Source: Fibrobacter sp. UWR3
GTDB taxonomy: Bacteria > Fibrobacterota > Fibrobacteria > Fibrobacterales > Fibrobacteraceae
Assembly: GCF_900143055.1 (NCBI RefSeq)
Contig: NZ_FRCW01000003.1
Location: 62,001 to 126,000, forward strand
DNA: 64,000 nt
Direction: 5' to 3'
Positions 54,208 to 62,902 of the stretch are shown piece by piece. The first letter of the stretch is position 1; every line of letters starts with the position of its first letter. The translations under genes were made by a program, and so were the position numbers. The notes beneath the pieces are model-generated. The model saw only the letters and a program-made list of their open reading frames with translations, was not told where the DNA came from and did no database searches.

Positions 54208-54306
54208 TTAAGCGCGGACCGTCGTGAAGCTGAATGCTTCGCCGTCGGCGTCGTTGGCTTCGAGGCCATCGGCGGCAGCAGCCCACTTGATAGCGACTGC
54301 TTGCGT
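54208..54306 (-). pseudogene. ileS 3'-end fragment C (last ~33 codons)
   Basis: Nearly identical to the last ~99 bases of the intact ileS (58858-58956), including the end ADGEAFSFTTVRA and stop. It is cut off by the palindromic element at 54307-54386; beyond that, 54387-54397 still encodes YIAG, the residues that precede this point in the intact gene. It is not expressed as ileS. Confidence 0.85.
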
Positions 54307-54386
54307 TTGGCACTTCGTGCCCAACCTCTTCGGCTCGGCAATGTCCACGCAAGCGTGGCCGCTGCTCTCGCCTTGCGAGGTTGTCA
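54307..54386. mobile_element. Palindromic element E1 inside ileS fragment
   Basis: About 80 bases with a 5' hairpin GGCAC-TTC-GTGCC, the conserved block CCAACCTCTTCGGCTCGG, a central perfect palindrome CCACGC-AA-GCGTGG and the conserved block CTCTCGCCTTGCGAGGTTGTC-type end. The same layout recurs at 54788-54863 with different but still self-paired hairpin and core. It encodes no protein and lies between YIAG and TQAV codons of ileS, shifting the frame by one base. Confidence 0.75.
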
Positions 54387-54787
54387 CCTGCGATGTACTT
54401 ATTTCACAGCTTCGACGAAGACCTTTTCGCCATCTGCATCAGATTCCTGCAAACCAGCAGTAGAATCCTTCCATACAATAGCATTAGCTTGAGTCTCGCC
54501 CTTGATGTAAAATTCGTTTTCCTTCACGGCCTGCTTCAGCACTTCGCTTTCAGAATAAAGTTCAATGCTGATACGGTCAGAGATTGCAAAGTTCTGATCC
54601 TTACGGCGGTTCTGGATGCGGTTCACGAGTTCGCGGGCCACGCAGGCGCGGCGGAGTTCGTCCGTAATCTTCAAGTCCAGAGCCACGGTGAAGTGCTGGT
54701 TGGCTTCCACGGCCATGCCGTCGGCCACGATGCGGTTGAGCATCAGGCAGTCGGCACCGACTTCACCGAAGTCGAACTTGATGGTTT

Positions 54788-54863
54788 GCGCTTCGCGCCC
54801 AACCTCTTCGGCTCGGTCATGAGAAGACAAGTCTTCTCGCGACTCTCGCCTTGCGTGGTTGTC
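54788..54863. mobile_element. Palindromic element E2 inside ileS fragment, in frame
   Basis: About 76 bases: hairpin GCGC-TTC-GCGC, block CCAACCTCTTCGGCTCGG, central palindrome GAGAAGAC-AA-GTCTTCTC and the block CTCTCGCCTTGCGTGGTTGTC-type end. It replaces codons AGE of ileS by 28 codons without disturbing the frame. Its flanks match E1 while the hairpin and core differ in sequence with pairing kept. Confidence 0.78.
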
Positions 54864-55003
54864 GCCATTCTGCAGAGCCTTGATTTCATCAACCGTGAGG
54901 CTGTTCAGCTTGGCGGAAATCACCTTCATGTTCTTCACATAATCCGGGCCCTTCGCCTTGATGGCGAGGAAGTTCGGCTTGGCGGAGAGCTGCACGAGCT
55001 TGG

Positions 55004-55020
55004 TTTGCACTTCGTGCCAA
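55004..55020. repeat. Partial palindromic element E3
   Basis: TTTGCACTTCGTGCCAA equals the first hairpin of E1/E2 and replaces ileS codons just after VREMK in fragment B. Only this end of the element is present. Confidence 0.6.
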
Positions 55021-55052
55021 CTTCATTTCGCGAACGTTGAGTTCTTCTTTTT

Positions 55053-55176
55053 TGGGGCGTTCCCCACTTCGTGGGTCGGGCTATATTTTAGGGACCGCTG
55101 TCATCGCTTCGCTCGCCACCCGTCTCCTAAAACGGCACCACAGTGCCGCCCCAAGGGGTCACTATCCCTAACGCGT
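55053..55176. repeat. Intergenic palindrome-rich repeat at fragment B edge
   Basis: Starts TTGGGGCGTTCCCCAC, TTCGTGGGTCGGGC, then runs to CCCCAAGGGGTCACTATCCC. It contains several short inverted repeats (CCCAC-TTC-GTGGG; CGGCAC-CACA-GTGCCG). The layout resembles dispersed repeats I know from Bacteroidota genomes, from memory. It begins where ileS similarity ends. Confidence 0.55.
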
Positions 55177-55192: not shown

Positions 55193-55774
55193 CTATTTTG
55201 CCAAAATAACCGCGTTAACATTTCCATTCAACCACCATAGGATTGGAAATTCTATGATGTATGAGTCTCCTTTGATTTTCAAGTCCACTTCATGAATTTT
55301 GCCGTTGTGCCGGAGCGTATAGGCGGCGGAGGCTTTTGGAAAAAGAGATTTAACAACAAAGACGGAGTATGTTGAGCTAGCGAACAGGTAGGAATTATCA
55401 TCATTCCATTCGGAGTTGTCAAATGGCGTTGGAATGATAATTTTATCCTTTTCAAATAGCGGAGCATATGCGGAAAAATCATTATTCTTTGAATTCGTTG
55501 AGAAAGTTCCTGAAATGACATCATATATTTCACCGGCTTTTTCCCGAGAACTTTCCTTAACGATTATACCTTTTCCTGCTTCACGAAACTGGTCTGCAGC
55601 ATCGCCCATGACATCACCGCCCGTTTGGCTATCCGACATTTGAACCATAGAATGATTGGCTAGAATTTCAAAGCGAATTTTGATATCGTTTTTATTTCCA
55701 TATACATGATGCTCCACCTCCATGCAGGAGGTGAGAACAATCATGAATATAAATAGTAATGAAAAACGAAACAT
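55193..55774 (-). CDS. Lipoprotein of unknown function
   Basis: A 193-residue protein with lipobox (FIFMIVLTSC-M), then a charged domain with no family I recognise; the C-terminal part is beta-rich (VDLKIKGDSYIIEFPILWWL). AT-rich codon use sets it apart from the genes left of 54 kb. It is the last gene of an apparent four-gene unit (FISUMP, 77-residue protein, GIY-YIG-like gene, this one), starting 7 bases after the end of the frameshifted gene. Confidence 0.65.
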   Translation of the reverse strand: MFRFSLLFIFMIVLTSCMEVEHHVYGNKNDIKIRFEILANHSMVQMSDSQTGGDVMGDAADQFREAGKGIIVKESSREKAGEIYDVISGTFSTNSKNNDFSAYAPLFEKDKIIIPTPFDNSEWNDDNSYLFASSTYSVFVVKSLFPKASAAYTLRHNGKIHEVDLKIKGDSYIIEFPILWWLNGNVNAVILAK

Positions 55775-55781
55775 GGCCTGT

Positions 55782-56297
55782 TTATTTAATATTGAGACAT
55801 TTCTTGAATTCGATTACGTCGTTTTTAGCTCTACTTGTATCGCCGTAGAAACTTTTGATGGTAAATTTCTCGGCGAGTTTTTTGATGTTCAATAAGTTTT
55901 CATTCGCTTTTTGCATTTTTGGATAAGCAAGGTCTTACAAAGGTCAATTTCTTCATAGCAATCTTTTCGATGTTCTAAGACGACAAAATATATTTTTAAG
56001 CCAGTCTTGGAAGCCTCCGCTAAGAAATCATTGAGCATAGCTTTCTTTGCTGTTGCAAAGCATTCGTTCTTGAAGGATTTATTTGTTCTACCGACATAGA
56101 TGGGATTTGAGCCACGAGTTACCGCATTAGCGAAAACATAACACCCTTTTTTATCAGCGTATTTTGAAAAATCTTTATCCTTCCAAAGTGATGCCCCAAC
56201 ATCACCAAGCTGTTGGATGGAATATTTTCCACCCTTGATTTTTTTTAAGCTTTGTCGGAACATCAAATGGACCATGGATTGTGAAATTAACGGGCAT
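55782..56297 (-). pseudogene. GIY-YIG-like nuclease gene with two homopolymer frameshifts
   Basis: The true start is the ATG at 56297, with a strong AAAGGAGTG site. It reads MPVNFTIHGPFDVPTKLKK and then meets an A8 run (56245-56252); dropping one A joins it to IKGGKYSIQQLGDVG in the next frame. Residues GCYVFANAV...PIYVGRTNKSF form a GIY-YIG-like core. A second shift is needed at an A5 run near 55914-55918; adding one A continues as QKMQKANENLLNIKKLAEKF to a stop at 55782-55784. The restored product would be about 171 residues. The two shifts have opposite sign and both lie in A-runs, so sequencing error, decay or slippage are all possible. The 77-residue gene lies 13 bases upstream. Confidence 0.75.
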
Positions 56298-56310: not shown

Positions 56311-56544
56311 TTAACCTTTTCTAATAACAATATCTTGAATGACAGAAAAGATTTTTTCTCCTAATTCTTGCATATTGCCAGTCTGTTTTTTGACCATAGG
56401 CTCTGTCCAATCAAATGCCCTAGCACTTTTAGTAATTTTTCCATCTTTCCATGCTTTGAAAGAATAGGAATGCAATTCCTTTCCATCATTGGTCTCTTTT
56501 GTATCAACCTTGATATTCAACAGGAGAGAATATGTTTTGGACAT
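56311..56544 (-). CDS. 77-residue protein of unknown function
   Basis: Preceded by an AAAGGAGGAATAG site. The short protein (MSKTYSLLLNIKVDTKETND...) looks beta-rich at the start and helical at the end (NMQELGEKIFSVIQDIVIRK). I recognise no family. It starts 2 bases after the FISUMP gene stop and ends 13 bases before the GIY-YIG-like gene start, so it could be a partner or immunity-like protein for either. Confidence 0.65.
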   Translation of the reverse strand: MSKTYSLLLNIKVDTKETNDGKELHSYSFKAWKDGKITKSARAFDWTEPMVKKQTGNMQELGEKIFSVIQDIVIRKG

Positions 56545-56546
56545 GA

Positions 56547-57449
56547 CTATTCCTCCTTTTTTTCTTCAGTATCAGCGATGCAGCGAACGTTAAATTTTCC
56601 CTTAAAATCCCATCTATCAATTTTTTCAACCCTAAGATCGACGTGATTTTCAATAGTATTTCCGTCGGAAAGGAGCCAATAACCTATTATCATAGATCCT
56701 GTTCCATATTTAAATTGACCATCTTCTTTATAGTAGCCCATTTTTTGACCCCAAAATTCACGAACAACAGAGCAATCTTCAAGAGCATGTTTATATGGTT
56801 CTCTTTCCTTGCAGTACTTTGATAGTTTGTTAATAAGTGTAGAAGCGTCTTTTTTATTTGGCAAACGCCATCCTTCGGGACATATATTTTTAGCCTCTAA
56901 AATGGTATAGAATCGACCTTTAGAACATTCGCTTTCGTCTTCAAGATAGCATATGCTAGTAGGCGTCTCTATGTTTAGATTGTTCGCCATCCAAATACTG
57001 TTTCCGATGCGAATAACTTTATGACCGTTGACTTCTTGAAGTCGTTGTAGCTCGCCTTTCCCCTGAACACAACGAACCGACCATAATTCTGACTTGAAAG
57101 CATACGCAAACTTATCTCCGTCTTTTACATAAGCACCTAAAGACAAGTCTTCTTTTTCTGTCGAAGACCAAGTATAATCAATGCTGGTATCAGAAACAAC
57201 GCCTTCCAATTCCTCTTTACTTGGTAGGCGCCAACCTTCAGGACAAGCAACGAGGGCTTCATCCCAAGAGTAGGAATCATTCCCTTTGTATTTCAGTTTC
57301 TCCGCCATCCACACTTGGTCTCCAATTTTGACGGTCTTATATTTTTGACCGTCACGCGGGTCGGTGAAAGATTCTCCACCGCAGGCGGAGAAAAGGAATG
57401 TCGTTGCAATAAAGGCTACGGCAGCGGCGATTCTATTGAGATGTTTCAT
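56547..57449 (-). CDS. FISUMP-domain lipoprotein with two repeats
   Basis: The start at 57449 follows GAGGACTG; 300 residues. A lipobox (IATTFLFSAC-G) precedes two Fibrobacter paralogous repeats: DGQKYKTVKIGDQVWMAEKL ... CPEGWRLPSKEE ... SVRC, then VIRIGNSIWMANNLN ... CPEGWRLPNKKD ... NVRCIADT. It is much shorter than the paralogue at 31405-33510 and lacks the long serine linker. Codon use is AT-rich like the rest of the island. It heads a four-gene unit; the long folded interval upstream may carry its leader. Confidence 0.85.
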   Translation of the reverse strand: MKHLNRIAAAVAFIATTFLFSACGGESFTDPRDGQKYKTVKIGDQVWMAEKLKYKGNDSYSWDEALVACPEGWRLPSKEELEGVVSDTSIDYTWSSTEKEDLSLGAYVKDGDKFAYAFKSELWSVRCVQGKGELQRLQEVNGHKVIRIGNSIWMANNLNIETPTSICYLEDESECSKGRFYTILEAKNICPEGWRLPNKKDASTLINKLSKYCKEREPYKHALEDCSVVREFWGQKMGYYKEDGQFKYGTGSMIIGYWLLSDGNTIENHVDLRVEKIDRWDFKGKFNVRCIADTEEKKEE

Positions 57450-57481
57450 ACAGTCCTCACTGGTTGGGTTAAAACCTAATG

Positions 57482-57774
57482 AGTTCCGCCCCTGCTCAAC
57501 AAGGAACTTCGCCAAATTTTGTATGAATACAAAAAAGGCGCAGATCGTTGCATTTATCCAAACGGGGCTCTAGACTGCCTCTACACGATAAACACAAACG
57601 ACCCACGCCCCAAAAGGGCTGTTGCCATTGGTCGATACGACCGTAAATCAGCCGAATAGCTGACACGACAAACCGAGATATGCCGAAAACGGCATACCTG
57701 CGTGAGCGTTCGCCTTGTCCTCGTGTATTTGGAAGTGTCTAGATTCCGTTTGGAGAACAAGAGCAAAAACTCTT
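57482..57774. ncRNA. Candidate structured non-coding element, strand uncertain
   Basis: Almost every part of this 290-base gene-free stretch folds. AGTTCC/GGAACT (57482-57508) and CGCC-TTTTGTAT/ATACAAAA-GGCG (57510-57540) are followed by a long closing stem: TCCAAACGG (57557-57565) pairs CCGTTTGGA (57746-57754) and TCTAGAC (57569-57575) pairs GTCTAGA (57737-57743). Inside it ACACGA/TCGTGT (57583-57588 with 57721-57726) encloses perfect hairpins GGTCG-ATA-CGACC (57630-57642), TCAGC-CGAATA-GCTGA (57648-57663) and TATGCCG-AAAA-CGGCATA (57679-57696). AAGAG/CTCTT (57759-57774) closes the right side. No known RNA family was recognised (not tmRNA, RNase P or SRP motifs). Confidence 0.5.
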
Positions 57775-57969
57775 TTACTCTTTAAAAATAACATAAAAAC
57801 GAGAAAAAAGTCCTAAAAGTTTACAAAAAAGTTCTTTTTTGCAATGAAAACGTTGAATTTTCGCTATTTTGTAAAGAAAAAGGGTATTCCAGGTTGTAAT
57901 GCATAAGGTTAAGCCGATTAAATCGATTGCTAAATCACAATGAAAAATCTATATTGTACAAGAGGTGAT

Positions 57970-58524
57970 ATGGCTGGATTTATTTCTGTACATATTGATG
58001 ATTTTACCCCTTGTCTCAAGGACAATTCCACAGGTGAGCTTGTGGATACCGAGGTCGTGCGCATTCGTCGGTCATCCTTTCTTTCAAAATACAACAAGCA
58101 AAATGGTTGGTATGTAAATTGGGGCTCTTTGGCAAAAAACTCTGAAATCTATGCTCTTGTTGTTAAGGGAACCGTAGATATTCAAGGGTTAGTTTCTCTT
58201 CAAAACAATTCTGACGCTAAGGCAATCTACATCCAGTGGATGTGCTCCGCCCCACAAAACAACAAACTGCTAACCGAAAACATTAAATATTCTGGTGTAG
58301 GCGGCCATTTATTTGCCATAGCCGGGAAAAAATCGGAAGATTATGGATACAACGGCGATGTATTTGGGTTTGCTGCAAGCGAAAAGTTACTTGGTCATTA
58401 TGTTGAAAAATTGGGAGCGGTTCCAATTTGCATGTTGCACCAATTCCATTTTGGGATTTTCAGTGAACAGATGAAAAATATTATGGAGGTATATACTTAT
58501 GACTGGACTGACGAAGAAATATAA
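57970..58524 (+). CDS. GNAT-like protein of a two-gene module, copy A
   Basis: The ATG at 57970 is preferred over 57940, with AGAGGTG just upstream; 184 residues. Its sequence is homologous along its whole length to the 62345-62902 product: PCLKD.TGE, NW, IQGLV, W.C.AP.NNK.LTE, then KYSGVGGHLFAIA, GFA, KLLGHYVEKLGA and EVYTYDW. The GVGGHLFA segment after a beta strand resembles the acyl-CoA-binding loop of GNAT acetyltransferases (G-x-G-x-x-L). This family assignment is my inference. Its last 26 bases overlap a 65-codon gene, as in the paralogous pair. A toxin-like acetyltransferase with its partner, or a housekeeping pair, are both possible. Confidence 0.7.
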   Translation: MAGFISVHIDDFTPCLKDNSTGELVDTEVVRIRRSSFLSKYNKQNGWYVNWGSLAKNSEIYALVVKGTVDIQGLVSLQNNSDAKAIYIQWMCSAPQNNKLLTENIKYSGVGGHLFAIAGKKSEDYGYNGDVFGFAASEKLLGHYVEKLGAVPICMLHQFHFGIFSEQMKNIMEVYTYDWTDEEI

Positions 58525-58857: not shown

Positions 58858-61800
58858 TTATGCGCGGACCGTCGTGAAGCTGAACGCTTCACCGTCGGCG
58901 TCGTTGGCTTCGAGGCCATCGGCAGCGGCAGCCCACTTGATTGCGACTGCTTGCGTCTCGCCGGCAATATAAGCCTCGTTCTCCGCGACAGCCTGCTTGA
59001 AGACTTCGCTTGCAGAGAACAGCGTCACTTCGATCTTGTCGGTGATGGCATAGTTCTGGTCCTTACGGCGGTTCTGGATGCGGTTCACGAGTTCGCGGGC
59101 CACGCAGGCGCGGCGGAGTTCATCCGTGATCTTCAAGTCCAGAGCCACGGTGAAGTGCTGGTTGGCTTCCACGGCCATGCCGTCGGCCACGATGCGGTTG
59201 AGCATCAGGCAGTCGGCACCGACTTCACCGAAGTCGAACTTGATGGTTTCGCCAGCCTGGAGAGCCTTGATTTCATCAACCGTGAGGCTGTTGAGCTTGG
59301 CGGAAATCACCTTCATATTCTTCGCGTAATCCGGGCCCTTCGCCTTGATAGCAAGGAAGTTCGGCTTAGCGGAGAGCTTCACGAGCTTGGTTTCGTCTTC
59401 GAGGAACTTCATTTCGCGAACGTTGAGTTCTTCGAGGATCAAGTCCTTCATAGTCTCGGCGACGTTCTTTTCTTCGGTGCCGTGAGCAACCACCGTCATG
59501 CTGGCAATCGGCATACGGTTCTTTACGTTGTTCGTTGCACGGATCACACGGCCCATTTCGACCATACCACGCACCATGGCGATGCGTTCCACGAGCTTTT
59601 CGTCCATCAGGGACTTGTCAGCACTCGGGAATTCGCAGAGGTGCACGCTCACCGGAGCGTTAGCATCGACTTCGCGAACGAGAATCTGGTAGATTTCTTC
59701 GGCGAGGAGCGGGAGGAACGGAGCGAGAATCTTGGAGAAGTCAACCAAGACCTTGTACATGGTGGCGTAGGCGGCGTTCTTGTCGCCATCGTTTTCGGAC
59801 TTCCAGAAACGACGACGGCTGCGGCGCACGTACCAGTTCGTGAGGTCATCAACCGCGGCAATCACAGCAGGCACAACGTTGTACAGGCGGTAAGCCTTCA
59901 TTTCCACTTCAACCTTGGCGGCCAAATCCTGCAGCGTTGCAAGCATCCAGCGGTCAAGTTCATTCTCGCTCTTGACTTCTTGCCCCGGCTTCCAGTTGAG
60001 CTGGCCCTTGGCGGCATCGGCATTGTGGTTAGACACAAAGAATGCCACAGCGTTCCAAAGCGGGAGCATCACCTGTTTGACGATGCCCTTCACGCCTTCT
60101 TCACTGAAGCGCAGGTCTTCAGCCTTCAAGGCAGCGGAGTTGATCATGAACAAGCGAATGGCGTCGGCACCCGTGCGTTCGATGAGGTCGTTCGGGTCCG
60201 GATAGTTGCGCTTGGACTTACTCATCTTGGAACCGTCTTCGGCCAAGATAATACCGTTCACAATCACGTTCTTGAATGCGGGCTTCTGGAACAAGGCGTT
60301 AGAAAGCACCGTCAGCGTGTAGAACCAACCGCGGGTCTGGTCGAGGCCTTCGGCGATGAAGTCCGCCGGGAAGCTGCGTTCCACCAGTTCCTTGTTTTCG
60401 AACGGGTAATGGCGGCTGGCATACGGCATGGAGCCGGATTCAAACCAGCAGTCGAAAACTTCCGGCGTACGGCGGTAAACCTTGCCGTTCTTTTCGATGG
60501 TGAGCTTGTCCACAAAGTGCTTGTGCAAGTCGTCGAGCTTCACGCCGGTGAGTTGCTGGAGTTCTTCAATGGAGCCAACAGCAATCATGTCGCCGTCATC
60601 AGAGAGCCACACTGGAATCGGCGTACCCCAGAAACGGTTACGGGAAAGGTTCCAGTCGCGGGCACCTTCGAGCCACTTGCCGAAGCGTCCGTTCTTGATG
60701 TGGTCCGGCACCCAGTTCACGGTCTGGTTGTTTTCGACCATCCATTCCTTCAGGGTCTTGGTCACGCCGTCCTTGCTCGTGACAGGCGCGTCAATCTTGA
60801 GGAACCACGTCTTGAGGGCGCGGTAAATCAGAGGAACGCCGGTACGCCAGCAGTGCGGGTAGCTATGGACAATCACGTCCTGCTTGAACACGCGGCCCTG
60901 TTCCTTGAAGTAGCGGATAATTTCCTTGTCGGCTTCCTTCGCACCGAGGCCCTTCCACATCGGGACCTTGTCGGTGAACTTGCCTTCGGTATCGAGCGGG
61001 TCGAAAAGGCCGAGGTCGAGTTCAGCACCCTTCTGGAAGTCTTCTTCACCGAAGGAGGGAGCGGTATGCACGGCGCCAGTACCATCTTCGGTACTCACGT
61101 AGTCGGCGGGGTAAATCTTGTAGTGGCGGGACAGCTGGTCCGGCGTCACGAATGCATCGGAAATGCGGGAGAGCGGCTCGTAGTCCTTGCCCACGAGTTC
61201 AGACCCCTTGCAGGTATCGACGATGTTCGGGTTCTTGAAGTAAGCGGCGGTACGGCTTGCGGCAATCCAGTACTTCTTGCCATCCTGTTCCACAAGGTTG
61301 TAGTCCATGTCCGGGCCCACAACGATGCAGAAGTTGGAGTACAGCGTCCACGGGGTCGTCGTCCACACGAGGATGCTCGTGTCCTTGAACTTGGGCTCGT
61401 TCGAGTTAATCGGGAAAATCAGCGTGAGGGACGGGTCCTGACGGTCCTTATAGCCCTGGTTCGTTTCGAAGTTCGAAAGCGGAGTCGCGAGAGCCGGGCT
61501 GTACGGCTGGATGCGGTAGCCCTGGTAGATGAGGCCCTTGTCGAAGCACTGCTTGAACACCCACCACACAGATTCCATGAAGTTCTTGTCCATGGTCTTG
61601 TAGCCCTTGTCGAAGTCCACCCAGCGGCCCATGCGGCGCACGGTCTTCTTCCATTCGCTGGTGTACTTGAGCACCTTGCCGCGGCAAGTTTCGTTGAACT
61701 TGTCCACACCGAGCTTCTGAATTTCGGCAACGCCAGCGAGACCGAGTTCGTTCTGCACGAGAGATTCAATCGGAAGGCCGTGGCAGTCCCAACCGAAACC

Positions 61801-62166: not shown

Positions 62167-62358
62167 CTAGCCTATCTTAAACTGCAGAATCTCTTCGGCG
62201 GTCAGTTCTTCAATTTTTTTCCCGACACGCCTTGCATATCGTCCAAGCTCCAAGAGATTCAATTTGCTCTTTGGAGGATTTTTATACGGATTCGGAGGAG
62301 CCATATACTCTTCCATAGAATCCGCCAAAATAACAGCGGGTTTCCTAATTCCACTCAT
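62167..62358 (-). CDS. Small partner protein of the module, copy B
   Basis: A 63-residue protein whose ATG lies 14 bases inside the GNAT-like gene, with GGAGG and the same spacing as in copy A. The C-terminal half (LELGRYARRVGKKIEELTAEEILQFKIG) shares the YA+K...I..LT.EE...F.I pattern with copy A. The N-terminal half is different (PPNPYKNPPKSK). Confidence 0.65.
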   Translation of the reverse strand: MSGIRKPAVILADSMEEYMAPPNPYKNPPKSKLNLLELGRYARRVGKKIEELTAEEILQFKIG

Positions 62359-62902
62359 AAGTATAGACCTCCAAAAGTTTTAATGATGCCTCGCCATCAA
62401 TGTAGAATTGATAGGGATGCAAGGCGCCCAAATAAGACGCTCCCAAAACTTCAATATAGTGATTTAAAAGCTTTTTGTTAAGGGCAAATCCATGAACAGT
62501 TCCTTCATACCCCCACGCAAGAGAACGATCCACAGCAACAGCAAAAAGATGCCCTCCAACACCGCTATATTTGGGACTTTCCGTAAGTGTTTTGTTGTTA
62601 TGCGGAGCAGCACAAGCCCAATGCAAATAGGCAGCGTGAGCATCCACATCATTCCGCACTCCAACAAGCCCCTGAATTTCGTTATTCTCTTTCAAGGCGA
62701 GAGCATACACATCTACTTCTTTGGGGACATTGATCCAATTGATTCCCCACCCATCCTTTTCCTTGAATTTTCTTAGAAACGAGCGACTTTCAATTTTGAA
62801 TACCACAGTTTCTTTGATTTCGCCTGTTTGAATATCCTTGAGACAAGGAACAATTTCATCCAGCCAAATGTCAACACATCCGCTATTCAGCGTATCATTC
62901 AT
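62345..62902 (-). CDS. GNAT-like protein of a two-gene module, copy B
   Basis: A 185-residue soluble protein with a strong GGGAGGAGTG site, homologous end to end to 57970-58524. Shared blocks: PCLKD.QTGE, SFLRKF, GW.INW, YALAL, EIQGLVGVRND, W.CAAPHNNKTLTE, KYSGVGGHLFAVA, VHGFALNKKLLNHYIEVLGA and EVYTYEW. The two proteins are clearly paralogous but well diverged, so they were acquired separately or separated long ago. One copy lies on each side of ileS, in opposite orientation, each with an overlapping small gene. Confidence 0.7.
   Translation of the reverse strand: MNDTLNSGCVDIWLDEIVPCLKDIQTGEIKETVVFKIESRSFLRKFKEKDGWGINWINVPKEVDVYALALKENNEIQGLVGVRNDVDAHAAYLHWACAAPHNNKTLTESPKYSGVGGHLFAVAVDRSLAWGYEGTVHGFALNKKLLNHYIEVLGASYLGALHPYQFYIDGEASLKLLEVYTYEWN

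What the first reader, a model, noticed from the sequence alone, without database searches (positions are those of the whole stretch)
55782..56297. GIY-YIG-like gene broken by two compensating homopolymer shifts
The best start (56297, strong Shine-Dalgarno) is in a different frame from the conserved core, and the natural C-terminus is in a third segment. Changing A8 to A7 near 56245-56252 and A5 to A6 near 55914-55918 restores one smooth 171-residue protein. Two shifts of opposite sign in A-runs may be read errors, but other genes in the window need none, so phase variation or slippage is possible.
Basis: seen in the sequence. Interest (0 to 1): 0.5.

Follow-up and report, generated by a model that had tools for sequence, protein, structure and literature searches.

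The report
Freshly broken GIY-YIG-like nuclease gene
A small gene resembling a DNA-cutting enzyme has recently been knocked out in this gut bacterium by two one-base slips and a change at a key residue, while close copies in related bacteria are intact and more distant relatives often sit beside anti-virus defence genes.

Summary
The window gene (55782-56297, - strand) starts in one frame, has its core in a second, and ends in the first again. Twenty copies of the family were found; 17 are open over their full length. The closest, L014, is intact and identical in DNA from codon 31 to codon 120. Read error is unlikely: the window copy also has Lys where all 15 aligned homologues have Glu (the presumptive catalytic Glu of GIY-YIG enzymes), and 28 other genes of the same contig (31 kb) compared with a relative show no broken frame, while the same test flags this gene. 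Substitution patterns point to recent loss. The shift sites are not conserved tracts, so an evolved phase switch is not supported. Best reading: a recently inactivated pseudogene. At the first site the surplus base may be a T or an A. Of wider interest: the family had no match in Pfam, NCBIfam or PADLOC; in 6 of 11 Fibrobacterota loci outside the window clade, and on one Polymorphobacter plasmid, it adjoins restriction-modification or candidate defence genes; two more copies (G028, G089) are also broken by one-base homopolymer indels. GIY-YIG membership rests on motif order and weak profile hits.

The parts
55782..56297 (-). broken GIY-YIG-like gene, start codon to stop codon
56202..56297 (-). 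N-terminal segment in the start frame, 31 codons then stop
55889..56275 (-). core open frame (128 aa)
55782..55916 (-). C-terminal segment, back in the start frame
56239..56248 (-). first shift site (TT + A8; one base longer than in relatives)
55908..55912 (-). second shift site (A5; A6 in three relatives)
55934..55936 (-). codon AAG (Lys) at the position of the invariant Glu
56311..56544 (-). 77 aa gene upstream, intact, kept in five of the relatives' loci
56547..57515 (-). Fib_succ_major-domain protein, intact
55193..55774 (-). 193 aa predicted lipoprotein downstream, intact

Best explanation
A recently inactivated copy of a small (about 171 aa) GIY-YIG-like nuclease gene, carried in a block that recurs in related genomes (Fib_succ_major protein, 77 aa gene, GIY-YIG-like gene, 193 aa lipoprotein). 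Shown: two one-base indels of opposite sign put the core out of frame, so translation from 56297 ends after 31 residues; the copy also has Lys in place of a Glu invariant in the aligned family; intact copies exist elsewhere. Inferred: the intact protein is a metal-dependent nuclease that works with anti-phage defence systems, because distant members adjoin restriction-modification and candidate defence genes; its loss was tolerated or favoured because such an enzyme is costly or redundant.
For: 17 of 20 copies found are open over the full length. L014 is intact and identical in DNA from codon 31 to 120. The Glu is invariant in 12 of 12 and 15 of 15 homologues. Against L014, codons 1-30 show 8 synonymous and no nonsynonymous differences apart from the altered codon 17 at the first shift; codons 31-171 show 0 synonymous, 2 nonsynonymous and the second shift. 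Control: 28 genes (31,222 bp) of this contig compared with G020, 0 with a cut open frame; this gene is flagged by the same test. The flanking 77 aa, 193 aa and Fib_succ_major genes are open. Defence neighbours: 6 of 11 Fibrobacterota loci outside the window clade against at most 2 of 38 random ORFs.
Against: No reads were available, so the indels are not confirmed directly. Only three coding changes fall in the part nearly identical to L014, so the inference of relaxed selection rests on few events. A looser control flagged 7 of 65 ORFs, which I attribute to false upstream starts, one non-homopolymer indel or diverged paralogues without resolving each. No neighbour of the window copy that I scanned matches a defence family, so the defence role is carried over from distant members.
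Confidence: 0.82

Rival explanations
1. Both shifts are sequencing or assembly errors in A-runs and the gene is intact.
For: Both sites lie in or beside A-runs and have opposite sign; no reads were available.
Against: The Glu-to-Lys change at an invariant position is not a homopolymer error; 0 of 28 genes (31 kb) of the same contig are broken in a test that flags this one. With that sample an error rate up to about 3 per 31 kb cannot be excluded, which would still make two in one 516-base gene unlikely.
Confidence: 0.08
2. Phase variation: slipped-strand mispairing switches the gene on and off.
For: Two other copies of the family (G028, G089) also carry one-base homopolymer indels within a nearly identical 2.6-kb stretch; defence genes are sometimes phase variable (general knowledge).
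Against: The tracts are short (A5/A6, A6/A7, T7/T8, A8) and differ in place between copies; the window sites are not conserved homopolymers in relatives; two shifts plus a missense change would have to revert.
Confidence: 0.07
3. Recoding: transcriptional slippage or programmed frameshifting makes a full-length protein.
For: An A8 run can be slippery (general knowledge; poly-A/T as a slippery sequence is stated in PMC3711429, passages).
Against: Two opposite events would be needed, one of them at only A5; relatives encode the protein in one frame; the product would still carry Lys at the invariant Glu.
Confidence: 0.03

Closest known systems
GIY-YIG nuclease superfamily (UvrC N-terminal domain, I-TevI, R.Eco29kI, R.Hpy188I)
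   Same: Motif order G-x-Y ... P-x-Y-x-G ... E ... I ... N, invariant in 15 of 15. The best-ranking PDB profile hits are UvrC domains (E 0.49-0.62 with A1; 0.047-0.083 for the top three with A3), and six of the ten A3 hits are GIY-YIG proteins (five UvrC, plus 9u7u at E 1.6).
   Different: None of these hits is significant on its own. No GIY-YIG match among Pfam hits of 12 members; PF01541 searched at E<=1 did not report the copies of G000 or G088. The residue after Y-x-G is Arg in only 3 of 12 (Lys in 6, Met in 2, Gln in 1).
Known and candidate defence systems beside which distant members lie (type I and III restriction-modification, TmtA, PADLOC PDC-M62, PDC-S06, PDC-S14, PDC-S56, PDC-M65, PDC-S39)
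   Same: Direct neighbours of the distant members.
   Different: The family itself matches no PADLOC model (0 of 15 members) and goes with several unrelated systems; the window clade has lipoprotein-type neighbours instead.
Singleton frameshifted genes (GeneTack study PMC3711429, passages read)
   Same: A frame-broken gene with intact homologues elsewhere. That study expects validated singletons mostly to be sequencing errors.
   Different: Here a missense change at an invariant residue and a clean genome sample speak against error.

Membership tests
GIY-YIG superfamily | GIY and YIG half-motifs | tested here: met
   G50, Y52, P64, Y66, G68 invariant in 15 of 15
GIY-YIG superfamily | conserved Glu after the third strand | tested here: met
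   invariant in 15 of 15 homologues; Lys in the window copy. Equating it with the catalytic Glu is by motif order
GIY-YIG superfamily | conserved Arg after YIG | tested here: inconclusive
   Arg in 3 of 12, Lys in 6, Met in 2, Gln in 1; displaced Arg is described for R.Hpy188I relatives (PMC2630997, passages)
GIY-YIG superfamily | C-terminal Asn (motif E) | tested here: met
   N136 invariant in 15 of 15; PMC1564403 section 6 says this motif can vary or be absent
GIY-YIG superfamily | significant profile match | tested here: inconclusive
   hhalign P 0.00056, 0.0042 and 0.00092 against three GIY-YIG profiles, over the half-motifs only; 0 of 60 column shuffles scored as high, but the reversed profile came close (P 0.002, 0.076, 0.0015); PDB best E 0.047
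GIY-YIG superfamily | GIY-YIG fold | tested here: inconclusive
   AlphaFold2 with 4 sequences, mean pLDDT 44
phase-variable gene (slipped-strand) | repeat tract conserved among homologues | tested here: not met
phase-variable gene (slipped-strand) | mixed tract lengths in one population | not testable with these tools
   no reads held
anti-phage defence component (family level) | recurrent place beside defence genes | tested here: met
   6 of 11 Fibrobacterota loci outside the window clade with an adjoining PADLOC match at E<=1e-20, and a Polymorphobacter locus; at most 2 of 38 random ORFs. Not met for the five window neighbours scanned
anti-phage defence component (family level) | protection against phage | not testable with these tools
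   needs a plaque assay

The most novel reading that the evidence does not exclude
An uncatalogued GIY-YIG-like family is a mobile, add-on DNA-cutting arm shared by several unrelated anti-phage systems in Fibrobacterota and at least one alphaproteobacterium, and its genes are repeatedly silenced, perhaps reversibly, by one-base slips in A/T runs soon after transfer: an off switch for a costly defence nuclease.
Probability: 0.12. Interest if true: 0.6.

Novelty: new member of a known kind. Interest (0 to 1): 0.3.

Why it matters
The broken gene itself is an ordinary recent pseudogene. It leads to a small protein family that the libraries searched do not name, that recurs across Fibrobacter genomes, and whose distant members often lie with restriction-modification and candidate defence genes. 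If the family is a shared nuclease arm of defence systems, repeated inactivation of its copies would point to a fitness cost that can be measured.

Tried and rejected
Relatives of the window protein in phages, plasmids and viral contigs: none; viral contigs with A1 or two distant members: none; phages with one distant member: none; plasmids with three distant members: the same single Polymorphobacter gene for two of them, none for the third. Pfam, NCBIfam, PHROGs and PADLOC for the protein gave nothing convincing (best PHROG E 0.013, unknown function). The structure model was poor, so no fold search was run. Profile comparison with GIY-YIG proteins of these genomes was motif-only.

Frameshift controls: the first (few homologues) and second flagged 3 of 25 and 4 of 76 G020 ORFs. 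I inspected the four; by eye they are an ORF over a tRNA and intergenic DNA, an ORF running across intergenic DNA, a net 19-base difference, and an ORF at a gene boundary. The reverse comparison flagged 1 of 74 G000 ORFs, not inspected. That method would probably have missed the window gene, so it was replaced. (with positive control): 7 of 65 G020 ORFs flagged (36 set aside as short or low identity, 21 as not coding-like) and 0 of 10 G061 ORFs (6 and 2 set aside)., stricter: 0 of 28 G020 genes (13 set aside as not coding-like); no G061 gene qualified.

I suspected from memory that the repeat at 55056-55174 is an IscB-type (HEARO) RNA. Rfam gave no match over it. A search for PF14239 found none in 61 genomes, but none of its 14 control genomes responded either, so this stays open.

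Full report
What is there. On the minus strand an ATG at 56297, behind AAAGGAG, opens a frame that ends after 31 codons. A 128-codon frame (55889-56275) carries the core, and a 44-codon frame (55782-55916) the C-terminus. Alignment with relatives shows that these are three pieces of one protein.

Relatives. A protein search of 111 family genomes found relatives in 12, the own genome included. A scan of GTDB contigs gave four loci; L015, L016 and L017 lie on contigs of the same length and place as three already found, L014 is new. A profile search of 167 genomes of the phylum found 18 copies in 16 genomes (two genomes show their copy as two rows because it is broken). With L014 and one gene on a Polymorphobacter plasmid that makes 20 copies. 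Seventeen are open over the full length. The broken ones are the window copy, the G089 copy (stop codons inside) and the G028 copy, whose ATG is out of frame with an otherwise open gene. All 12 members aligned extend N-terminally past the downstream ATG, so that ATG is not the true start.

The two shifts. Against L014 the window is one base longer at codon 17 (TT + A8 where L014 has C + AAAGAAAA) and one base shorter at codon 129 (A5 for A6). At the first site the purine run is equally long in both, so it is not certain that the A-run is what changed. Neither site is a conserved homopolymer across the seven relatives.

Why decay is the best reading. From codon 31 on, the window and L014 differ by no synonymous change, two amino-acid changes and one shift. 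In codons 1-30 they differ by eight synonymous changes and no amino-acid change outside codon 17, where the first shift lies. One amino-acid change puts Lys at a Glu that is invariant in 15 of 15 homologues, at the place of the catalytic Glu of GIY-YIG enzymes (by motif order; the roles of UvrC residues are recalled). The other, His to Tyr, is not clearly harmful, since two distant members have Tyr there. The downstream lipoprotein has 13 synonymous and 6 nonsynonymous differences and no shift. Among 28 genes (31,222 bp) of the same contig compared with G020, none had its open frame cut below 85% of its length, whereas this gene was flagged at 0.78 by the same test. A looser version (77,283 bp) flagged 7 of 65; most carry the shift near an upstream start or are 70-83% paralogues, but I did not resolve each, so a few real frame breaks elsewhere are not excluded.

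What the intact protein may do. The invariant residues (G-x-Y, P-x-Y-x-G, E, N) fit the GIY-YIG superfamily of PMC1564403 (passages; section 6 part 1). With the wider alignment the three best PDB hits are UvrC domains at E 0.047-0.083, and six of ten listed hits are GIY-YIG proteins; none is significant alone. Profile-profile matches cover only the half-motifs; 0 of 60 shuffled profiles score as high, but the reversed profile comes close. The structure model is poor. Membership is likely, not proven.

Neighbourhood. Fourteen wider loci were fetched: three of the window clade (L111, L117, L118) and eleven outside it (L106, L107, L108, L109, L110, L112, L113, L114, L115, L116, L119). In six of the eleven an adjoining gene matches PADLOC at E 1e-20 or better: L106 PDC-M62A (with M62B next; HsdM/HsdS-like genes upstream recognised by eye), L108 TmtA, L109 type III restriction enzyme, L110 PDC-S14 (then a type I restriction enzyme), L113 PDC-S56, L119 PDC-S06 (then Shedu SduA). 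L107 was not scanned but shares that cassette with L119 in nearly identical DNA. The neighbours scanned in L112, L114, L115 and L116 had no match at that level (best 6.5e-8, in L116). The Polymorphobacter member has a PDC-S39 gene on one side and PDC-M65A/B genes, beyond one unmatched gene, on the other. Of 38 random ORFs of the own contig at most 2 match at that level. I chose large neighbours and the control is not matched for mobile regions, so the contrast is indicative only. In the window none of five neighbours scanned matches PADLOC at E 0.01. The 77 aa gene and Fib_succ_major-like genes accompany several close relatives.

Repeated breakage. The G028 and G089 cassettes share about 2.6 kb (L107 5860-8500) with 5 substitutions but 3 one-base homopolymer indels, each in a coding sequence: two in the GIY-YIG-like gene, one in the PDC-S06 gene of G028. 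Both genomes are drafts of many contigs, so error is not excluded there. Selection for loss, and slippage switching, are not separated by these data.

Literature. Searches of the open-access library (listings of the best 10-20 of 10 to 1,742 papers each) showed no title or abstract opening that describes this family or its breakage; the lists are capped, so this is not proof of absence. PMC2630997 and PMC3711429 were read in passages.

Verdict. An ordinary event (a recent pseudogene), mildly interesting as a pointer to an unnamed GIY-YIG-like family with defence neighbours.

Noticed in passing
window 55056-55174 (- strand); L014:3526-3644; L015:6051-6200: A structured repeat (119-158 nt in 11 of the 12 aligned copies; GCGTTAGGGATAGTGACCCC...TATAGCCCGACC...AACGCC). 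Its exact core occurs 11 times in the own genome and in 31 of 61 family genomes; 12 of 32 predicted pairs show two-sided changes among 12 copies; no Rfam match over it. In the window and L014 it abuts an ileS fragment. Possibly an undescribed structured RNA or mobile-element end.
   Followed up: partly
window 54208-55047 against 58858-59433: A second, degenerate copy of the ileS 3' end, so the block with the broken gene lies between intact ileS and an ileS fragment. Extra ileS 3' matches also occur in G102 and G097. In L015 the related block abuts a fragment that looks like the 3' end of pgi (recognised from memory, no call).
   Followed up: partly
window 54307-54388 and 54785-54866: Two copies (77% identical) of an 82-nt repeat inside the ileS fragment.
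   Followed up: no
window 57516-57900: Leader-like repeat upstream of the Fib_succ_major gene: 11 matches in the own genome, itself included, four of them longer than 250 bases.
   Followed up: partly
window 57940-58524 (+) and 62345-62902 (-): Two paralogous proteins of 194 and 185 aa (48% identity) lie on either side of ileS; no Pfam match at E 1 and no PADLOC match at E 0.01.
   Followed up: partly
L107:5860-8500 and the matching part of L119: A nearly identical cassette in two genomes with three one-base homopolymer indels that break genes.
   Followed up: partly
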